Positions 2,509 to 48,694 of a stretch of 49,819 bases of DNA are shown here, piece by piece. Both the position numbers and the translations under genes were made by a program. The first letter of the stretch is position 1. Each line of letters starts with the position of its first letter. The DNA is from Kiritimatiellia bacterium. GTDB lineage: Bacteria; Verrucomicrobiota; Kiritimatiellia; CAIQIC01; Lenti-01. The stretch is from positions 1-49,819 of the forward strand of contig JAFYAC010000051.1 in NCBI GenBank assembly GCA_017540905.1, written 5' to 3'. The notes under the pieces were generated by a model that was given only the letters and a program-made list of their open reading frames with translations, was not told the DNA's origin and ran no database searches.

Positions 2509-2637
2509 ACCCATTTTCCCACATCCCTCCCCCATCAAAATCCCCCTCCCGTTCCCCTCCCTCACCCCCGCCGCCGCCCTCGGGCTGGGCGGCAGTCCCC
2601 TGCCCGCCGTGCGAAAACGGCACCCTGCCGCGCCACA

Positions 2638-2680
2638 TGTCCAAGTTTATGGCGCGGCTGAAAGCCGCACCTCCCAGCCG
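2638..2680 (-). repeat. GC-rich hairpin repeat, type A
   Basis: A 43-bp unit with core GGTGCGGCTTTCAGCCGCGCC (hairpin GCGGCTTTCAGCCGC). It is near-identical, in inverted orientation, to 43016-43058 including the flanking ACTTGGACA. Shorter copies are at 7251-7276, 7386-7432 and 43073-43123. Confidence 0.75.
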
Positions 2681-2683
2681 ATG

Positions 2684-2750
2684 GTCGCGCGGAAGCGCCC
2701 CCCGCCCGCCGCGCTCTCCACGGGGAGGGCCGCGCTTCGGTGCGTCCGCG
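2684..2750. repeat. GC-rich hairpin repeat, type B
   Basis: Two arms, GCGCGGAAGCGC and its GCGCTTC-containing partner, flank CGCTCTCCACGGGGAGGG. Related copies are at 2999-3040 (half), 25307-25373, 28572-28637 and 42865-42935. Confidence 0.7.
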
Positions 2751-2961
2751 GCGGGGAAGCGCCAGAGAGGGGCACGAAACAATGTGGCCGTCTTGGGAGG
2801 GCCGCGCTTTGTCGCGGCCGCGCGAACGTGGTGTTTCAGGCATGTCCATAGAGTGGTTGAAAATTGTGTATCCGTTCCGGAGCAGGCAAACTCCGATTTG
2901 TCTCCCTTTCCAATGCAACCACATTGTTTCTTAACCCGCTCTGAAGAGCCCTGCGGGCACC

Positions 2962-3040
2962 GGCCCGGACGAAGCCGGGCCCTCCCAGGAGGCGGCCCTC
3001 CGCGCTCTCCACGGGGAGGGACGCGCTTCCGCGCGTCCGC
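2962..3040. repeat. GC-rich repeats, type C plus half type B
   Basis: 2962-2986 contains GGCCCGGACGAAGCCGGGCC followed by CTCCC, identical to 42978-43002. 2999-3040 is the right half of a type B element. Confidence 0.7.
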
Positions 3041-3106
3041 GCCGGAAAAGTGGCGACACAATGGACCCTGGCCACACAATTGCTGAACTTCCGGCCAACC
3101 AAACTT

Positions 3107-3209
3107 TTTTCCAATCATTGGAAAACCGACGAAAATTTTTTTCCAATCATTGGAAAAACCGGCCAGATTTTTCCAACCATTGGAAAAAAATTTTCCAATC
3201 ATTGGAAAA
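3107..3209. repeat. Array of four 19-bp palindromes
   Basis: Copies of TTTTCCAATCATTGGAAAA begin at 3107, 3139, 3169 (central C for T: CCAACCATTGG) and 3191, spaced 32, 30 and 22 bp apart. Those spacings are close to three, three and two helical turns. The array lies about 270 bp before the DUF4139 start and 200 bp before its predicted promoter. Similar arrays are at 25242 and 47964. Perfect dyad symmetry and helical phasing suggest protein binding sites; this is inference. Confidence 0.85.
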
Positions 3210-3408
3210 CTTTTTCCGGGACCATTGCCCGGCGCGGAGGAGGTCTGGGCACAAAGGAGGGGAAGCCTGTCGTGGGCGATTGGAGCGTGCGAAGCACTTT
3301 CCCCCCTCCGAGAGGGGGGTGCCGCCCGGGCGGCGGGGGGAGTACTGCGGGTCGCCTGTGCAGGACATCCCGTGCTCACCCGAACAGGCCCTGCCGTGCC
3401 AAAAACGC

Positions 3409-24762: not shown

Positions 24763-25203
24763 ATGCGGCTCCACGCCCCGTTTGCATCCCTCCTCCTGGC
24801 CGCCGCCGTCGGTACCGCGCTGGCGGCGGACCTGCCCGGCCGCTACCGGGCCTTCCTCGAAGCCCCCTCCGAAACAACCCTTCTGGATTTGCTCGTCGAG
24901 TCCGTCGATGCCGCCGCGGAGGGGCCTCCCACCCCGGAAGCCCGGGACCTGCTGCTGGAGCAGCTCGCCACGGACCCGCCGCCGCGCTACCGGGTGGACC
25001 TCGCCGACGCCGCGGAAATCGACGCCTGGACCGTTGCCTTCGCCTGCACCGAATCCTTTGACGCCTGCGGTCGCCTCCCCCTGGCCGGCCCCGCCGTCGC
25101 GATATGCAGCCGCCTGCGCGACGGCGAAATCTACCGCTTCCACCTCTTCTCCATCCGCCCCGCCGACCTTCCCGCCATCCGCGCCGCGCTCGCAGCCCCC
25201 TGA
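24763..25203 (+). CDS. Secreted protein of unknown function
   Basis: 146 residues. Signal peptide MRLHAPFASLLLAAAVGTAL ending ALA-A, then a compact domain with two cysteines (ACTESFDACGR) that could form a disulfide, ending ADLPAIRAALAAP. No family recognised. Last gene of the operon, 15 bp after the membrane protein; a pair of 19-bp palindromes follows 39 bp after its stop. Confidence 0.6.
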   Translation: MRLHAPFASLLLAAAVGTALAADLPGRYRAFLEAPSETTLLDLLVESVDAAAEGPPTPEARDLLLEQLATDPPPRYRVDLADAAEIDAWTVAFACTESFDACGRLPLAGPAVAICSRLRDGEIYRFHLFSIRPADLPAIRAALAAP

Positions 25204-25241: not shown

Positions 25242-25282
25242 TTTTCCAATGATTGGAAACTTTTTTTCCAATGGTTGGAAAA
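25242..25282. repeat. Pair of 19-bp palindromes, 22 bp apart
   Basis: TTTTCCAATGATTGGAAAC begins at 25242 and TTTTCCAATGGTTGGAAAA at 25264. The 22-bp spacing equals that of the cluster at 47964-48026. Confidence 0.85.
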
Positions 25283-25306: not shown

Positions 25307-25373
25307 CCCGGGAGGGGCGCGCTTCCGCGCGACCTTTCGTTGCGGCCGCGCGGAAGCGCGTCCCTCCCCCGGG
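25307..25373. repeat. GC-rich hairpin repeat, type B
   Basis: A long inverted repeat: GGGAGGGGCGCGCTTCCGCG and its inverse around a TTTCGTTGCG loop. Confidence 0.65.
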
Positions 25374-25453
25374 GGCTTCCTTGTGGCTTGATACAGGGCG
25401 CCCGGACGGGGGCTTCCTTGTGGCTTGATACAGGGTGCCCGGACGGGGGCTTT
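25371..25453. repeat. 37-bp tandem direct repeat, about 2.2 units
   Basis: Units at 25371-25407 and 25408-25444 differ at one base (AGGGCG versus AGGGTG); a third begins GGGGGCTTT. Each contains CTTGTGGCTTGATACAGG. Too few units and no spacer pattern for CRISPR. Confidence 0.8.
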
Positions 25454-25510: not shown

Positions 25511-25707
25511 GCCTGCGGCGCAAACACGGAGCGCGCGGAGGAAGGAGACACGGAGAGTTTGCAGGGAGGAGCTTCGCGCGTCCAAAAACCTCCTTCCCAA
25601 ACGTTTGTCCGGCGTTTCCAGAGTGCGGAGGCGCCTCCAACAACCGCCCCATCCAAATTCTCTCCGTGCCTCCTTCCTCCGTCCCCTCCGTGTTTCGCGC
25701 CGCGAGC
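25511..25707. repeat. MITE-like inverted-repeat element, copy 2
   Basis: Left end GCCTGCGGCGCAAACACGGA, right end its approximate inverse at 25688-25707. The central CCAAACGTTTGTCCGGCG corresponds to the centre of copy 1. No coding content. Confidence 0.65.
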
Positions 25708-25769
25708 CGGTTTCCAAAAGAACAACCCTTGCCTGACCGTCATTCGGGGTTTTCCCTCCTTCGGGCACA

Positions 25770-28256: not shown

Positions 28257-28571
28257 GCGGATTCCTCGGCCCGGGAAAAACGCTTGCATCCGGCCGCGGA
28301 ACGTGCGAGAGTGGCCACGGATTGGTGAGTTCGCTAATTACTTGGGCCAACTGCCCGCATCGCGCGCTTGACGCGCATGAACCGCCAATCCCTTTTTGTG
28401 CCCCGATCGCATGCCGGCCGCTCGATCCCCGCGCCAGGGAACACCTCCCGCCTTGCCCTCTCCCGAGATCCGCTCTCTCCCTTTGCCCCTCCCGCCTTGC
28501 CCCACTTTGATGCTCCCGCCTGGAGCGGATTAAGTTGTTCTGTGGCTTCCCAGAGGTTTCCAAACCACAAG

Positions 28572-28637
28572 GTCGCGCGGAAGCGCGCCCCTCCCGTTGC
28601 GCTCTCCACGGGGAGGGACGCGCTTCTGCGCGTCCGC
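28572..28637. repeat. GC-rich hairpin repeat, type B
   Basis: GTCGCGCGGAAGCGCGCCCC paired with GGACGCGCTTCTGCGCGTCC around CGCTCTCCACGGGG. Confidence 0.7.
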
Positions 28638-28825
28638 AGTGGGAAATGGCTGGTGAGCCAACGGCTCGAAGCCACACTGTTTTTGAAACCGCTCCAGCCC
28701 CACGCCCGAACGTTCTCCTCCCGGTTTTTTCCCTCCTGCCATTTCACCGCACGACACATCCGGCCGAGTGCATGCAACCGTGCGTGCAGATGGTTTCCCG
28801 TGCTTTCCTGCCATCCCTCCAGCCC

Positions 28826-28877
28826 ACTTTTGCACACAGGAAAATTCCTTGACTTTCTTTCGCGCTTTCCCCATCCT
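28826..28877 (+). promoter_or_regulatory. A+T-rich module plus promoter, leaderless GTG start
   Basis: ACTTTTGCACACAGGAAAAT leads into TTGACT (28849-28854), 17 bp, CATCCT (28872-28877). The GTG start is 7 nt further on. The arrangement is nearly the same at 49681-49742. Confidence 0.65.
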
Positions 28878-28884
28878 CGCCCCC

Positions 28885-29889
28885 GTGAAAAAACCGCTGC
28901 AACAAGCCCTCGGCTGGGTGGCTGGCTACGTCGGCGCCAACGTCCAGTTCTATGGCGGCGCCCTGTCCCTGCCCGTGGTCGTGCCCGCCGCCCTCGCGGG
29001 GCTTGCGGCGATGTCGGCGCTGGCGCTGGGGGGCTGGCTGGCCGACGCCACCGGGGGCGCCATCCTCTCCGAGCTGCGCCGCCGGGCGCGCCTGCGGGCC
29101 CCGCGGCCGCCTTCGCCGTCGCTGCGCGGCACGCCGACGCCGGAGGAGTTCGCCGCCGATGCCGCGGTGCGGCCCCGCACACTGGCGGTGCGCCTGCGGA
29201 TCGGGTCGCGTCTGGCGGACCTGGCGCCGACGCTCGATCGCGGCAACCTCTACGACGTCTCGCCGACGGGCGCCAAGCGCATCCGCGACCGCGGTCGCGG
29301 CGTGAGGGGCTGGCTGGAGGACAACCGCGTCGGCATGAACTACTCGACGCTCATGCGCTACATGCGCCTGGCGGTCCGCCTCCGCGCCCTGCTGGGGCTG
29401 GACGAACACCTCCCCCTGGAGTGGCTGCTGCCGGGCGCGGCGGCCTCCGCGAATGTGCCGCCCGCCCTGCAAGCGCAATGCGCGGCGGCGAAACGCAAAC
29501 TCGCGCGCCTGATGCGGGAACACTGGAATTTCAGCCGCCTGCAGTCGCACGTGGACAGGGCGCTGGGGCTGCGGCGGCTGCCGCGTACGGGGAGAGCCGG
29601 CGCCGGAGGGCGGACGCGACCGCTCGACGAGGTCCTTGCGGAGAACACGCGCCGCGAGCTGGCGGACTTTTTGCAGGCGCGTGACCTTTCGCCCAAATTG
29701 GAGGCGCTGAGGCAGGCGGCGGTGGCCAGATTCCTGGAAGCCGGACAAGGGGGCGTGTCCGGTCCCGGGATTCCTTGTCCTGCCCCGGCAACGGGGAGTC
29801 AGGGCACGGGGAAGAAGTGCAGGACGGGCGGCTTGTCGGCGGAGCGGCGGGGCAGGGCGAGCTGGAAGCCGATGGACGAGGGCGTGTAG
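28885..29889 (+). CDS. Protein of unknown function with N-terminal membrane segment
   Basis: 334 residues from GTG 28885. Residues about 20-60 are hydrophobic (SLPVVVPAALAGLAAMSALA). The middle reads RLRIGSRLADLAPTLDRGN and VRGWLEDNRVGMNYSTLMRY followed by MRLAVRLR, which recalls the GWLxxNxxxSxxTAxRYMRLA core of DUF3102-like phage and plasmid proteins. A charged helical part follows. The last 45 residues lack family-like character and are read opposite the 3' end of the next gene, so the original stop may have been lost. Not assigned to a family with confidence. Confidence 0.55.
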   Translation: MKKPLQQALGWVAGYVGANVQFYGGALSLPVVVPAALAGLAAMSALALGGWLADATGGAILSELRRRARLRAPRPPSPSLRGTPTPEEFAADAAVRPRTLAVRLRIGSRLADLAPTLDRGNLYDVSPTGAKRIRDRGRGVRGWLEDNRVGMNYSTLMRYMRLAVRLRALLGLDEHLPLEWLLPGAAASANVPPALQAQCAAAKRKLARLMREHWNFSRLQSHVDRALGLRRLPRTGRAGAGGRTRPLDEVLAENTRRELADFLQARDLSPKLEALRQAAVARFLEAGQGGVSGPGIPCPAPATGSQGTGKKCRTGGLSAERRGRASWKPMDEGV

Positions 29890-36635: not shown

Positions 36636-36775
36636 AGGAGCTTCGTGCGTCCATAATCGTCCCGCCCAGCGTTTGTCCGGCGTTTTTCGGGTGCGAAGGC
36701 TCCTCCAACAAACGCCCCGTCCAAAATCTCCTCTGTCTCCGTGCCTTCGTTCCCTCCGTGTTTGGCGCCGCAGGC
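36636..36775. repeat. MITE-like inverted-repeat element, copy 3 (left end missing)
   Basis: Matches the central and right parts of copies at 7510 and 25511: CAGCGTTTGTCCGGCG, then CTCCGTGCCTTCGTTCCCTC and GTGTTTGGCGCCGCAGGC. The outer CTTGTCTGATCAGCATTCG motif follows at 36797-36815. The left inverted arm is absent. Confidence 0.65.
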
Positions 36776-36902
36776 CCCTTCCGCGAGGGAAAATCCTTGT
36801 CTGATCAGCATTCGCGGCTTCCATCCTCGGGGCCCCCGGAGGAGCCTTGGCGACGGGAGGGGGATGGAGTTTTCATGGGGTTGGATGGCGAGAAAAACGG
36901 GA

Positions 36903-42692: not shown

Positions 42693-42864
42693 CCGCCTCC
42701 TCCCGCCCCCCCCGTATTTCCCTCCCCTCCCCCCTCCAAGCCAACGTGATGACGCCCCCCCGCCGCCGTCCATTCCACACCACTTCCTCCGAATCCTGTG
42801 CCACCGCTTCGCCCTGAGCAGGGCAAGGTTTTCAGTGGCTTTTCAATCCCTCCCCCACCCCCAT

Positions 42865-43002
42865 GTCGCGCGGAAGCGCACCTCTCCCTCTGCGCTCTCC
42901 ACGGGGAGGGCCGCGCTTTGTCGCGGCCGCGCGATTGGGGTGTTACCGGCATGCCCCCGAAGCGCCCTTGCGGAGACGGCCCGGACGAAGCCGGGCCCTC
43001 CC
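42865..43002. repeat. Hairpin repeats, types B and C
   Basis: Type B at 42865-42935 shares GCCGCGCTTTGTCGCGGCCG with 2801-2820. Type C at 42978-43002 is identical to 2962-2986. The same order B-C occurs near 2.8-3.0 kb. Confidence 0.7.
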
Positions 43003-43015
43003 GGGATACGGAAAA

Positions 43016-43130: not shown

Positions 43131-43158
43131 GGAGATTATGGAAAAACCTTGCGATTTC
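43131..43158 (+). repeat. A+T-rich dispersed module (copy 8)
   Basis: GGAGATTATGGAAAAACCTT then GCGATTTC. It faces copy 9 at 43301-43334. Confidence 0.5.
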
Positions 43159-43300
43159 ATGTCGGGCGCTCCCTCCGGTAGGGCCCGACCTCCGGGCGGG
43201 CCGTACGGCAGGATGGCCCATGCCGGGCCGCCCGGAGGCCGGCCCCTACCGGCCCACAGGGACAGGCCCAGACCATTCCATCCGGCCGCCCAAAACCGAT

Positions 43301-45337: not shown

Positions 45338-48049
45338 TCACTCCGCGTCGCGCGTCCAGTGTTCCTGGCGGATGCGCTCGATGCGCGACTCGGCCTCGGC
45401 GGCCGCGGGCACCCCGGCCCCGGCCACGCGCCGGTAGGTCTTGACGGCCGCGTCCCACTGCCCGGCGCGCTCCTGGAGCGCCGCCGCGGCGAACGCGGCC
45501 CGCGTGAACCACACCGCCGACTCGGCCGCCGGGCGCGCCTCCTGCAGGTACGAGTACGCCGTCTCCAGGTACTGCTCCAGCGCCTCCGTGCGGTTCCCCA
45601 GCTTCTCCAGGCACCGCCCGATCTTGTAGCGCGCCTGCAGCGCGAGGTCCCCGGGGACCCCGGCGAAGTCCGCCAGCGCCCGGTAGCTCATCAGCGCCTC
45701 CTCGTACCGCCCCGGGTCGGACGCCCCCAGCGTGAACTGGCAATCCCCCTTGCGCCCGCGCGCCATGAGCGCCTCGGGGCTCTGAGGGAACCGTCCCGCC
45801 ACCTCGTCGAACGCGACGATGGCGAGCGCGAACTGCCCCAGCTCGCACAGCACGTCGCCCTGCGAGAGCAGCGTCTCGGGCAGGCGCGGCGAGTCGGGGT
45901 AGCCAGCCATGAGCGCGTTGAAATGCTCGTTCGCCTCGAGGTAGGCCGACCGCGCGGCCGCGGCGCGCCCCGCCCAGTACAGCGCTTCCGGCGCCCGGGC
46001 GCTGCGCGGGTAGTCGGCGGCGACGGCGGCGAACCGCTTCTCCGCGACCTCCGCATCGCCCTCGTTGAAGGCCTTTTCCGCGAGCCAGAAGCGCACGTCG
46101 GGCGCGAACTCCGAATCCGGGTACTCCTTGAGGAACCGCTCGCACGCGGCGATGGCGTCCTCGTCCTTCCCGAGCAGGTACAGGCACCACCCGCTCATGA
46201 ACAGCGCGCGCGGCGCGGCCTCGCTCTTGGGGAACTCCCGCCGGATCCGCAAAAAATCGTCCAGCGCCGGCTGGAACGCCCCCAGCCCGTACCGGATCCG
46301 CCCCCGCGCCATCAGCGCCGCGGCGGTCTGCGCCGGGTCGGCGGCCTTGCCCGCGCGCCCGGCGCCCTCGACGAGCCGCCCGTACTGCTCCATCGCCGTG
46401 TCCAGCGCCCCCCGCTCCTCGTACATCCGCCCGAGCCGCGCCGTCGCCGCGCGCGTCCACGCGCTTTCCGGCTCCGACCGCGACAGGTCCAGCCAATCGA
46501 TTTCCGCCTCCCGCTCCTCGCCCGCGGCGAGCCGCGACTCGGCCCCCAGGAAGCGCGCCTCGCCCCACTCCGGCGAGCCCGCGGGCGCCTCCGACGCGAT
46601 TTCCGCGAACGCCTCCGCCGCGCGCGCGTGCCTTCCGCACGCCGCCTGCAGGCGGGCTTCTTCCAGGCGCAGCGCGAGGCGCGCGGCGCCCTTGCCCTCG
46701 GCGGCGACGGCGCGTTCCAGCGCGTCCGCGGCCTCCTCCAGGCGGCCCTGGGCCGCGAGCAGGCGCCCCAGCCGCGCGTGGACCCCCGCCGTGCCCTCCG
46801 CCCCGTCGAACGCTTCCAGCCAGGCCCTGCACTCCGCCTCCGCCTCCTCCGGGCGGCCGGCCTGCTCCAGCCAGTCCGCCAGTTGCAGCTGCAGCGCCGC
46901 CGCGCGCGACTCGTCGGGGACGCGCCCCGCGACCTCGCGCAGCAACCCGGCACCCTCCTCCCCGCGCCCCGCGGCGCCCATCAGGCGGGCGCGGAGCACC
47001 TGGCACTCCAGGCGGTCCTCCGGATGCCTCGCGAGCGAGAGCGCCTTGCCGGCGGCCTCCAGCGCGGCCCCGTACTCCCCTTCCGCCGCCAGCGCCCTGG
47101 CCGCCACCCGGTACCCGCCCGAAGCCGCCTCCGCGGCGGGATCCAACCCTTCCAGCCGTTCCAGCCACGCCTTGCCGGCGAGCTTGCCGCCCTCCAGGTC
47201 CAGCTCCGCCAGCCGCACCAGCGCCCAGCCGTGCCACGGCGACGGCTCCGGCCACTTCTCCGCCACGCGTTCCAGCGCCGCGCGGGCCCGGGCCGTCTCG
47301 CCGGCGGCCGCCATGCGGTCCGCGAGGGCCATCCACGCGCCCGGCGCCTGGTTCCCGTCCTGGCCCTCGCCGCCGGGCACCCCCTCCAGCGCCTCCCCGG
47401 CCGCTTCCGCCTCGTCCCAGCGGCCCAGCTCGGCGGCCGAATCCATGGCCAGGCGGAGCGCCGCGGGCACCGCCGCGTCGCCCGGATGCCGCCCGGCGAA
47501 CCCCTCCAGCTCCTCCAGCGCGGACTCCGGCTTGCCGGACGCCGCGGCGGCCCGTGCCGATTCCAGCGCGAAGCCCGCCGCGAGCGGCCCCGACGCACCG
47601 ACCTTGCCGCGGTGCGCCGCCAGCAGCCGCACGGCTTCCGGCGGCTTGCCTTCCGCGAGCGCCACGCGCGCCAGCCATAGGGCCGCCTCCGCCTGGCGGC
47701 GGCGGTCGGACGACTCCGCGAGCACCGACTGGAACTGCCGGCGCGCCAGCCCCCACATCCCGTCCTCCAGCGCCGCGCGCCCCACCGCCAGACGCTTCAC
47801 CGCCTGCTCCCCGCCGGCCCCTTCCGCGACCTCCGCGTGCTCGGCGGTCTCGGCGGTTTCCGCGGCTTCCGCGGCCTCCGCGGACGGCACCTCCTCCGCA
47901 ACGCCGGACGCCTCCTGTCCCCACGCGGCGGCCCCCCACGCCACGCAACCCGCCGCCGCCAGTTTTTCCAACCATTGGAAACCTTTTTTCCAACCATTGG
48001 AAACTTTTTTTCCAATCATTGGAAAACTTCTGTCGCCCGCCATGCGCAT
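45338..48049 (-). CDS. Large TPR-repeat protein
   Basis: 903 residues, almost wholly TPR/HAT-like helical repeats, for example RAALEDGMWGLARRQFQSVL, LYLLGKDEDAIAACERFLKE and ALYWAGRAAAARSAYLEANE. The C-terminal half has the Tol-Pal/YbgF-type spacing of outer-membrane-associated TPRs. A hydrophobic stretch LAAAGCVAWGAAAWG (residues about 31-45) ending GQEA looks like a signal peptide. Its n-region (SFPMIGKKVSNGWKKGFQWL) is coded by three 19-bp palindromes, so start choice is uncertain: ATG 48049, 48043 or 48019 (inside a palindrome). A scaffold role in the periplasm is inference. Confidence 0.8.
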   Translation of the reverse strand: MRMAGDRSFPMIGKKVSNGWKKGFQWLEKLAAAGCVAWGAAAWGQEASGVAEEVPSAEAAEAAETAETAEHAEVAEGAGGEQAVKRLAVGRAALEDGMWGLARRQFQSVLAESSDRRRQAEAALWLARVALAEGKPPEAVRLLAAHRGKVGASGPLAAGFALESARAAAASGKPESALEELEGFAGRHPGDAAVPAALRLAMDSAAELGRWDEAEAAGEALEGVPGGEGQDGNQAPGAWMALADRMAAAGETARARAALERVAEKWPEPSPWHGWALVRLAELDLEGGKLAGKAWLERLEGLDPAAEAASGGYRVAARALAAEGEYGAALEAAGKALSLARHPEDRLECQVLRARLMGAAGRGEEGAGLLREVAGRVPDESRAAALQLQLADWLEQAGRPEEAEAECRAWLEAFDGAEGTAGVHARLGRLLAAQGRLEEAADALERAVAAEGKGAARLALRLEEARLQAACGRHARAAEAFAEIASEAPAGSPEWGEARFLGAESRLAAGEEREAEIDWLDLSRSEPESAWTRAATARLGRMYEERGALDTAMEQYGRLVEGAGRAGKAADPAQTAAALMARGRIRYGLGAFQPALDDFLRIRREFPKSEAAPRALFMSGWCLYLLGKDEDAIAACERFLKEYPDSEFAPDVRFWLAEKAFNEGDAEVAEKRFAAVAADYPRSARAPEALYWAGRAAAARSAYLEANEHFNALMAGYPDSPRLPETLLSQGDVLCELGQFALAIVAFDEVAGRFPQSPEALMARGRKGDCQFTLGASDPGRYEEALMSYRALADFAGVPGDLALQARYKIGRCLEKLGNRTEALEQYLETAYSYLQEARPAAESAVWFTRAAFAAAALQERAGQWDAAVKTYRRVAGAGVPAAAEAESRIERIRQEHWTRDAE
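47964..48026. repeat. Array of three 19-bp palindromes at exact 22-bp spacing
   Basis: TTTTCCAACCATTGGAAAC begins at 47964 and 47986, and TTTTCCAATCATTGGAAAA at 48008. The array overlaps the 5' coding end of the TPR gene. Because 22 is not a multiple of three, the copies are translated in three different frames (FPMIGK, FSNGWK-like, FQWLEK). Confidence 0.9.
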
Positions 48050-48052
48050 TGT

Positions 48053-48124
48053 CCGTTCAATCGTTGGATTGGTCTGTCGTTGGATCGCTGGATCGTTGGA
48101 TCGTTCAATCGTTGGATCGTTTTG
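48053..48124. repeat. 8-bp tandem repeat (TCGTTGGA)
   Basis: Units in 8-bp register from 48053: CCGTTCAA, TCGTTGGA, a diverged unit, then TCGTTGGA, TCGCTGGA, TCGTTGGA, TCGTTCAA, TCGTTGGA and a partial unit. It fills most of the gap between lemA and the TPR gene. Confidence 0.8.
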
Positions 48125-48139
48125 CCGGTTCGGTTCAGA

Positions 48140-48694
48140 TCAGAACTGCACCGTCGGGGCCGTCGCCGCCGCTTCCACCGCCTCGAAGGGCTTGCGCGTC
48201 TCGAACCCCGCCAGCCGCGCAATCAGCGCCCCCGGCATCTTGCGGATGCCCGTGTTGTAGCCCTTCACCGACTCGTTGTACCGCTGGCGCTCCACGTTGA
48301 TCCGGTTCTCCGTCCCGCTCAGCTCGTCCTGGAGCCGCACGAAATTCTCGTTCGCCTTCAGCTCCGGATAGTTCTCCACCACCACCATCAGCCGCGCGAG
48401 CGCGCTTTCCATGCCCGAAGCCGCCGCCATCTTCTCCTCCGGCGTCTTCGCCTCGCCCCACTGGCTGCGCAACCGCGTGATCTCCTCCAGCGTCCCCTTC
48501 TCGTGCGCCGCGTAGCCCTTGACCGTGTTCACCAGGTTCGGGATCAGGTCGAACCGCCGCTGCAGCACGCTTTCCACGTTGCCCCAGGCTTCGTTGCACG
48601 CCTCGTCCTTGCCGACCATGCCGTTGTACTGCCCCAGGCCCCACAGGACCAGGACCGCCACAACCGCAATCGCCCAGATCGTACCCTTCTTCAT
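48140..48694 (-). CDS. lemA: LemA family protein
   Basis: 184 residues. One N-terminal helix (GTIWAIAVVAVLVLWGLGQY), then the LemA coiled-coil domain: NEAWGNVESVLQRRFDLIPN, LVNTVKGYAAHEKGTLEEIT, YPELKANENFVRLQDELSGT, ENRINVERQRYNESVKGYN. Inner-membrane protein with an outside helical domain; role unclear. AAGGAA before the ATG. Placed 31 bp after the TPM-domain gene, a common pairing. Confidence 0.95.
   Translation of the reverse strand: MKKGTIWAIAVVAVLVLWGLGQYNGMVGKDEACNEAWGNVESVLQRRFDLIPNLVNTVKGYAAHEKGTLEEITRLRSQWGEAKTPEEKMAAASGMESALARLMVVVENYPELKANENFVRLQDELSGTENRINVERQRYNESVKGYNTGIRKMPGALIARLAGFETRKPFEAVEAAATAPTVQF

What the first reader, a model, noticed from the sequence alone, without database searches (positions are those of the whole stretch)
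3107..3209. Helically phased 19-bp palindrome arrays
Three separate clusters of TTTTCCAATSATTGGAAAA-type palindromes occur in a GC-rich genome: four copies here (spacing 32, 30, 22 bp), two at 25242-25282 (22 bp) and three at 47964-48026 (22, 22 bp). All spacings lie near whole turns of B-DNA, so bound proteins would line up on one face. Perfect dyads with constant CCAAT/ATTGG arms point to an unknown dimeric DNA-binding protein, perhaps nucleoid-organising or a global regulator. I know of no named element with this sequence.
Basis: partly seen in the sequence, partly recalled or inferred. Interest (0 to 1): 0.75.

Follow-up and report, generated by a model that had tools for sequence, protein, structure and literature searches.

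The report
Helix-phased palindrome arrays of Kiritimatiellia
Hundreds of short DNA palindromes, set at whole turns of the DNA helix, are scattered mostly between the genes of one class of little-cultured bacteria; they look like docking rows for a protein that has not been identified.

Summary
In detail: all nine sites stand where stated; 100 shuffles gave none. The genome holds 513 exact TTCCAANNNTTGGAA against 0 reversed controls. The three central bases vary in relatives. High copy number is confined to this class (Kiritimatiellia by contig titles): 36 of 131 class genomes have ten or more sites, up to 1339; none of 256 other genomes sampled in the phylum has more than 5. A scan allowing any spacing of 20-50 bp gave neighbours only at 20-22, 30-33 and 41-44 bp; best period 10.3-10.4 bp. 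In this genus arrays are modular and copied: the four-site array recurs at about 37 listed places in each of two sister species, yet three of four arrays tested are missing beside the sisters' orthologous genes. Arrays occupy convergent gaps as often as divergent ones, so most are probably not operators. No link to REP transposases was seen; the class Lrp is a poor candidate. Best reading: REP/BIME-like dispersed arrays bound on one DNA face by an unidentified oligomeric protein. Binder and function are not shown.

The parts
3101..3220 (+). Four-site composite array; sites at 3107-3125, 3139-3157, 3169-3187, 3191-3209; centres TCA, TCA, CCA, TCA; spacings 32, 30, 22. About 110 bp of it recurs as a dispersed element in two sister species.
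25242..25282 (-). Two-site array, spacing 22, about 40 bp after the stop of CDS 24763-25203, in a convergent gap. Sister G002 keeps two sites at 21 bp; sister G001 has one site.
47964..48026 (+). Three-site array, spacings 22 and 22, over the predicted 5' end of the TPR-protein gene 45338-48019(-). The orthologous genes of two sister species have no array.
45338..48019 (-). TPR-repeat protein gene whose predicted start and first codons are encoded by array 3 (start call by codon usage, uncertain)
3124..3140 (.). Variable 17-nt linker between 15-bp cores 1 and 2 (relative of the 16-nt class of this genus)
3156..3170 (.). Variable 15-nt linker between cores 2 and 3
3186..3192 (.). 7-nt linker between cores 3 and 4, following the CCA-centred site as the grammar predicts

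Best explanation
The arrays are dispersed, mostly extragenic elements, like REP/BIME elements in organisation. Each unit is a 15-bp dyad, TTCCAA-NNN-TTGGAA, that binds a dimer, and the units sit two, three or four helical turns apart so that an oligomer (several dimers on one DNA face, probably bending or wrapping the DNA) covers the array. In the window's genus the arrays follow a grammar (a CCA-centred site is followed by a 7-nt linker, a TCA-centred one mostly by 14-17 nt) and spread as modules of up to about 110 bp; they gain or lose units and whole copies between sister species. SHOWN: motif, copy number, confinement to the class among the genomes sampled, phasing, grammar, relatedness of copies, turnover, mostly intergenic placement. 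INFERRED: a protein binds; it is oligomeric; it or a partner helps the arrays persist or spread; the effect is local nucleoprotein structure or a block at gene ends rather than promoter control.
For: 513 sites against 0 controls; class confinement. Neighbour spacings: 185 of 185 within 20-50 bp fall at 20-22 (16), 30-33 (166) or 41-44 (3). Best period 10.3-10.4 bp, R=0.91 on 269 pairs; R=0.87 at 10.3 when distances of 29-34 bp are left out (103 pairs). Own-genus loci: R=0.83 at 10.35 on 339 pairs. Arms nearly invariant: in own-genus loci 160 exact sites, and 2, 0, 2, 9 partners with 1, 2, 3, 4 arm mismatches; in CAIVKH 69 exact and 9, 0, 1, 2; while 15- and 16-nt linkers are nearly all different (29 of 30 and 28 of 31 distinct). 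Grammar: 53 of 58 gaps after a CCA centre have 7 nt and 56 of 61 after a TCA centre have 14-17 nt; the other 10 gaps follow other centres. Arrays 1, 3 and A absent beside orthologous genes of the sisters; array 2 differs by one unit in G001. Within-genus counts from 1 to 1177 (g53) and 62 to 778 (g28).
Against: No binding protein identified. No mobiliser identified; target-site duplications not tested. In G085 sites look solitary: none of the 6 in 60 kb examined has a partner at 31-32 bp. Exact sites were required for detection, so arm invariance is partly ascertainment; the degenerate-partner counts are the only check, and they are less sharp in CAISWQ (39 exact; 8, 1, 3, 6), G042 (28; 0, 0, 1, 12) and G019 (36; 4, 0, 0, 20), where many 4-mismatch words may be chance. 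Linkers are alike above shuffles in every set (own 0.83-0.88 against 0.53-0.57; G042 0.82-0.90 against 0.48-0.51; CAISWQ 0.72 against 0.50; CAIVKH 0.75 against 0.63; G019 0.62-0.67 against 0.49-0.50), so copying may contribute to the common spacing everywhere. In the window's own genus arrays show no clear stop-codon preference (21 nearest a stop, 17 nearest a start). The genomes are mostly draft assemblies, so missing copies beside repeats could partly be assembly gaps.
Confidence: 0.6

Rival explanations
1. True REP/BIME elements spread by a RAYT (REP-associated tyrosine transposase, Y1 family).
For: Palindromes in regularly spaced modular clusters, over 100 copies, fast turnover match the REP/BIME description in PMC2817692 (passages).
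Against: Y1_Tnp: 4 of the 15 genomes without a match have ten or more sites (G071 183, G042 111, G060 58, G055 16), against 33 of the 82 with a match. Of 20 stretches around listed Y1_Tnp genes only 4 hold any site, the nearest about 0.8 kb from the gene, none with sites close on both sides; these 20 are a small part of the Y1 hits. All centres lie on one strand in 33 of 38 arrays, not alternating.
Confidence: 0.1
2. Operators of a global regulator of Lrp/AsnC type: octamers wrap DNA whose 13-17 bp palindromic sites lie two or three turns apart.
For: PMC2995911 (passages) reports 13-17 bp inverted-repeat sites, same-face alignment and spacing of two or three turns; PMC4046817 (passages) gives a 15-bp palindrome for Ss-LrpB. 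A protein with the AsnC domain is nearly universal here (89 of 97), and the 8 genomes without it have 0 or 1 site.
Against: 52 of 89 genomes with the domain have fewer than ten sites. The 8 without it belong to only two families. The HTH recognition helix differs between site-rich genomes (by eye; 18 of 20 loci readable). Only 2 of 20 Lrp neighbourhoods hold a site. Convergent gaps carry arrays as often as divergent ones.
Confidence: 0.12
3. RNA-level elements (hairpins acting as terminators or 3'-end protectors).
For: In relatives arrays lie near stop codons (73 of 108 tandem cases closer to the stop, median 34 bp). The four RNAs folded are more stable than shuffles (z -4.9 to -6.7).
Against: Any row of dyads folds well. 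A period of 10.3-10.4 bp is that of B-DNA and has no evident reason in RNA. Arrays also occur in divergent gaps and inside genes.
Confidence: 0.1
4. DNA uptake sequences kept by biased transformation.
For: Hundreds of copies, near-invariant core with variable surroundings, loss in some lineages.
Against: Known uptake words are single and not set in phased dyad arrays (recalled). Lone half-sites exist (20 in the window outside the nine sites) but no control was made. Competence genes were not tested.
Confidence: 0.05

Closest known systems
REP / BIME elements (enterobacteria, Stenotrophomonas, Pseudomonas)
   Same: Extragenic palindromes in short clusters with defined linkers, hundreds of copies, fast turnover between relatives
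   Different: Shorter near-perfect dyad with free centre; one orientation in most arrays; strict helical-turn spacing; no Y1 transposase link seen; the same core across a class
Lrp/AsnC (feast-famine) multi-site targets such as the Ss-LrpB control region
   Same: 15-bp palindromes two or three turns apart on one DNA face
   Different: Hundreds of loci in all gap types, near-invariant arms; binder unknown and the class Lrp is a poor fit
ARG boxes of ArgR (recalled, from no call)
   Same: Two palindromes about two turns apart bound by an oligomer
   Different: A few operators per genome, not a dispersed repeat

Membership tests
REP/BIME | Mostly extragenic palindromes in high copy number, clustered in modules | tested here: met
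   (154 of 201 classified arrays intergenic)
REP/BIME | Units in alternating orientation | tested here: not met
   33 of 38 arrays (one of them a single site) have all centres on one strand
REP/BIME | Cognate RAYT flanked by the repeat or correlated with copy number | tested here: not met
   the flanking test covers 20 stretches only
Lrp target arrays | 13-17 bp dyads two or three turns apart | tested here: met
Lrp target arrays | Bound by an Lrp-family protein | not testable with these tools
   only indirect: variable recognition helix, sites in 2 of 20 neighbourhoods
MITE | Terminal inverted repeats with target-site duplication | not tested
   no clean filled/empty pair was examined
Operator of a transcription factor | Preference for promoter-bearing (divergent, upstream) gaps | tested here: not met
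   24 arrays for 80 convergent, 22 for 75 divergent, 108 for 509 tandem neighbour pairs; tandem arrays closer to stop 73, to start 35; in the own genus no clear preference
DNA uptake sequence | Biased uptake by a competent host | not testable with these tools
   none

The most novel reading that the evidence does not exclude
Kiritimatiellia carry a chromosome-organising nucleoprotein system of their own: an oligomeric dyad-binding protein occupies hundreds of helix-phased arrays at gene ends, wrapping or bridging the DNA and acting as a boundary for transcription or supercoiling, while the arrays spread through genomes as a domesticated or parasitic repeat.
Probability: 0.3. Interest if true: 0.87.

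Novelty: new variant of a known kind. Interest (0 to 1): 0.73.

Why it matters
A repeat whose conserved traits are a dyad core and its rotational position on the DNA helix, kept in many families of one bacterial class, points to a structural DNA-protein complex for which I found no named member. It gives a direct handle (a phased-probe pull-down) on how a little-cultured class may organise its chromosome, and it offers a repeat family with copy numbers from 1 to over 1000 inside one genus in which to study how such arrays arise and vanish. Where arrays overlap gene starts they may also produce odd predicted N-termini (inference from window array 3).

Tried and rejected
RAYT/Y1_Tnp link: no clear co-occurrence and no close flanking sites in 20 stretches. 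Lrp: present almost everywhere, no sites around it in 18 of 20 stretches, recognition helix variable. Known RNA families: 0 Rfam hits in the window at gathering score. tRNA: none in the window. Viral carriage: 13 stretches of viral contigs hold a site pair; in 9 of them the (first) spacing is 21-22, 31-32 or 41-42, in 3 it is 28 and in 1 it is 45; whether these are viruses of such hosts or host DNA was not examined, so a viral role is not excluded. In print: the letter strings searched gave 0 papers; name searches showed nothing on such repeats in this class in the listed part (20, 20, 10 and 12 papers of far more hits in three of the four). All this covers only the held open-licence library. 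Array B of L022 could not be scored in the sisters. A first claim that half-sites are not enriched was dropped because no control was made.

Full report
Observation. The nine sites exist as described (sequences): four at 3107-3209 (spacings 32, 30, 22), two at 25242-25282 (22), three at 47964-48026 (22, 22). None of 100 shuffles of the window gave one. The genome (G000, 3.5 Mb, 178 contigs) holds 509 exact TTCCAAYSRTTGGAA and no reversed control.

The real motif. Relatives carry TTCCAA-NNN-TTGGAA with a variable centre. In the 115-stretch sample the commonest centres are TCA 143, GCC 73, CCA 30, ACC 28 of 375 sites, strands merged. The window's genus uses mainly TCA and CCA.

Where it occurs. 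Among 97 relatives, 60 have at least one match and, by my count of the listing, 37 have ten or more. Across the phylum (387 genomes drawn from a larger group) 36 of 131 class members have ten or more, up to 1339, while none of 256 genomes outside the class has more than 5; controls were at most 3 (class totals counted by hand from the listing). Counts swing inside genera: g53 from 1 to 1177, g28 from 62 to 778; g34 from 1 to 110. I take the class to be Kiritimatiellia from these titles. Sheep-rumen contig L092 has site pairs at the same spacings as the window's genus, so a rumen or gut source for the window is likely (inference).

Helical phasing. The scan allowed any spacing from 20 to 50 bp. 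All 185 adjacent spacings in that range fell at 20-22 (16), 30-33 (166) or 41-44 (3). Over 269 pairs up to 160 bp the best period is 10.3-10.4 bp, R=0.91; without distances of 29-34 bp it is 10.3, R=0.87, 103 pairs. Some of these contigs may belong to the window's genus. A family-f18 genome shows seven sites with exact arms at 0, 31, 63, 94, 126, 157 and 189 bp (L070). Against it: in G085 none of 6 sites examined has a partner at 31-32 bp.

Copying versus selection. In the window's genus 38 distinct arrays follow a grammar: gaps after CCA centres have 7 nt (53 of 58), gaps after TCA centres 14-17 nt (56 of 61), and 10 gaps follow other centres; 33 of 38 arrays keep one orientation. The 15- and 16-nt linkers are related (best identity 0.83-0.88 against 0.53-0.57 shuffled) but nearly all different in detail, whereas arms hardly vary: 160 exact sites, and 2, 0, 2, 9 partners with 1, 2, 3, 4 arm mismatches (the window itself was not in the second count). 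So here spacing is partly inherited with the copied module. Linker likeness: G042 0.82-0.90 against 0.48-0.51 shuffled, CAISWQ 0.72 against 0.50, CAIVKH 0.75 against 0.63, G019 0.62-0.67 against 0.49-0.50. Copying is thus plain in the own genus and G042 and weak in CAIVKH and G019, where partners still sit at 31-32 bp. Partners with 1, 2, 3, 4 mismatches were 9, 0, 1, 2 beside 69 exact in CAIVKH (16 of the 17 listed loci used), 8, 1, 3, 6 beside 39 in CAISWQ, 0, 0, 1, 12 beside 28 in G042 and 4, 0, 0, 20 beside 36 in G019; the many 4-mismatch words may be chance. I read this as copying plus selection on core and spacing. Detection required exact sites, so the arm figures favour my reading.

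Turnover. Array 2 is kept in G002 (spacing 21) and is a single site in G001, with a GC-rich stretch before it. Array 3: the sisters' orthologous gene has no array; similarity ends at window 47815, and the sisters begin with an ordinary-looking ribosome site and signal peptide (translated by eye). Array A of L022 is missing beside both flanking genes in both sisters. Array 1 is missing beside the downstream gene in G001 and beside the upstream gene in G002 (one flank each). So three of four scorable arrays are missing in the sisters. Assembly gaps at repeats are a caveat.

Placement. Of 219 arrays in 135 loci from relatives (a few may be of the window's genus), 18 at locus edges were dropped; the other 201 were 108 tandem, 47 inside, 24 convergent and 22 divergent, against 509, 80 and 75 tandem, convergent and divergent neighbour pairs in the same loci (gene calls by codon usage). 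Tandem arrays lie closer to the upstream stop in 73 of 108 (median 34 bp) than to the next start (median 71). Convergent gaps are not expected to hold promoters, so most arrays are probably not operators. In the window's own genus the preference is not clear: nearest gene end is a stop in 21 and a start in 17 of 38. Fifteen of the 47 'inside' arrays lie within 92 nt of a predicted start; like window array 3, these may be start-call errors or real overlaps.

Candidate partners. Y1_Tnp (RAYT family): 4 of 15 genomes lacking it have ten or more sites, against 33 of 82 with it; of 20 neighbourhoods 4 hold sites, the nearest about 0.8 kb off. Lrp/AsnC: the published geometry of Lrp targets (13-17 bp dyads, two or three turns apart, same face; PMC2995911, passages read; Ss-LrpB 15-bp palindrome, PMC4046817, passages) fits strikingly, and the domain is nearly universal (89 of 97; the 8 without it have 0 or 1 site), but 52 of those 89 genomes have fewer than ten sites, the recognition helix varies among site-rich genomes and 18 of 20 stretches around the gene have no site. 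It works like Lrp arrays; membership is not shown. REP/BIME features are from PMC2817692 (passages).

Verdict. A real, class-specific, helix-phased dispersed repeat; organised like BIMEs and spaced like Lrp targets, with membership in REP/BIME failing on two features and in Lrp targets unproven. My searches of the open library showed no description of it.

Noticed in passing
window 2629-3066, 28517-28647, 42810-43011: GC-rich dispersed repeat (words such as CTCTCCACGGGGAGGG and GCGCTTCCGCGCG) with further copies in sister genomes, sometimes next to the palindrome arrays (its 14-base word lies within 400 bp of 7 of 38 arrays, 2.2 expected by density).
   Followed up: partly
window 43143-43254: About 110-bp intergenic repeat with more than 25 listed copies at 83-94% in sister G001.
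   Followed up: no
window 25597-25752 and 36665-36820: Two copies of a 156-bp intergenic repeat, 74% identical.
   Followed up: no
window 25370-25443: A 37-bp unit duplicated in tandem, 97% identical.
   Followed up: no
window 48056-48120: Row of CGTTGGATCG-like words between array 3 and the LemA gene.
   Followed up: no
window 20000-49819 and L022 against G001/G002: Genes up to 99% identical to sister species but scattered over different contigs, often with similarity ending near the gene ends: gene order seems shuffled at operon scale, though some blocks stay together (G002 contig C22).
   Followed up: partly
window 28811-29775; L022 11804-12627: Multi-copy sequences with many hits at about 64-91% in both sisters, probably gene families.
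   Followed up: no
window 47815-48655: Array 3 and most of the LemA gene lie in 840 bp that correspond to 78 bp between the same neighbours in both sister species.
   Followed up: partly
L199-L211: Thirteen viral-contig stretches carry site pairs: nine with an in-phase first spacing (21-22, 31-32, 41-42), three at 28 bp (L200-L202) and one at 45 bp. Not examined whether they are viruses of such hosts.
   Followed up: no
L226-L228 (G085): Solitary sites without phased partners in a genome with 334 of them.
   Followed up: partly
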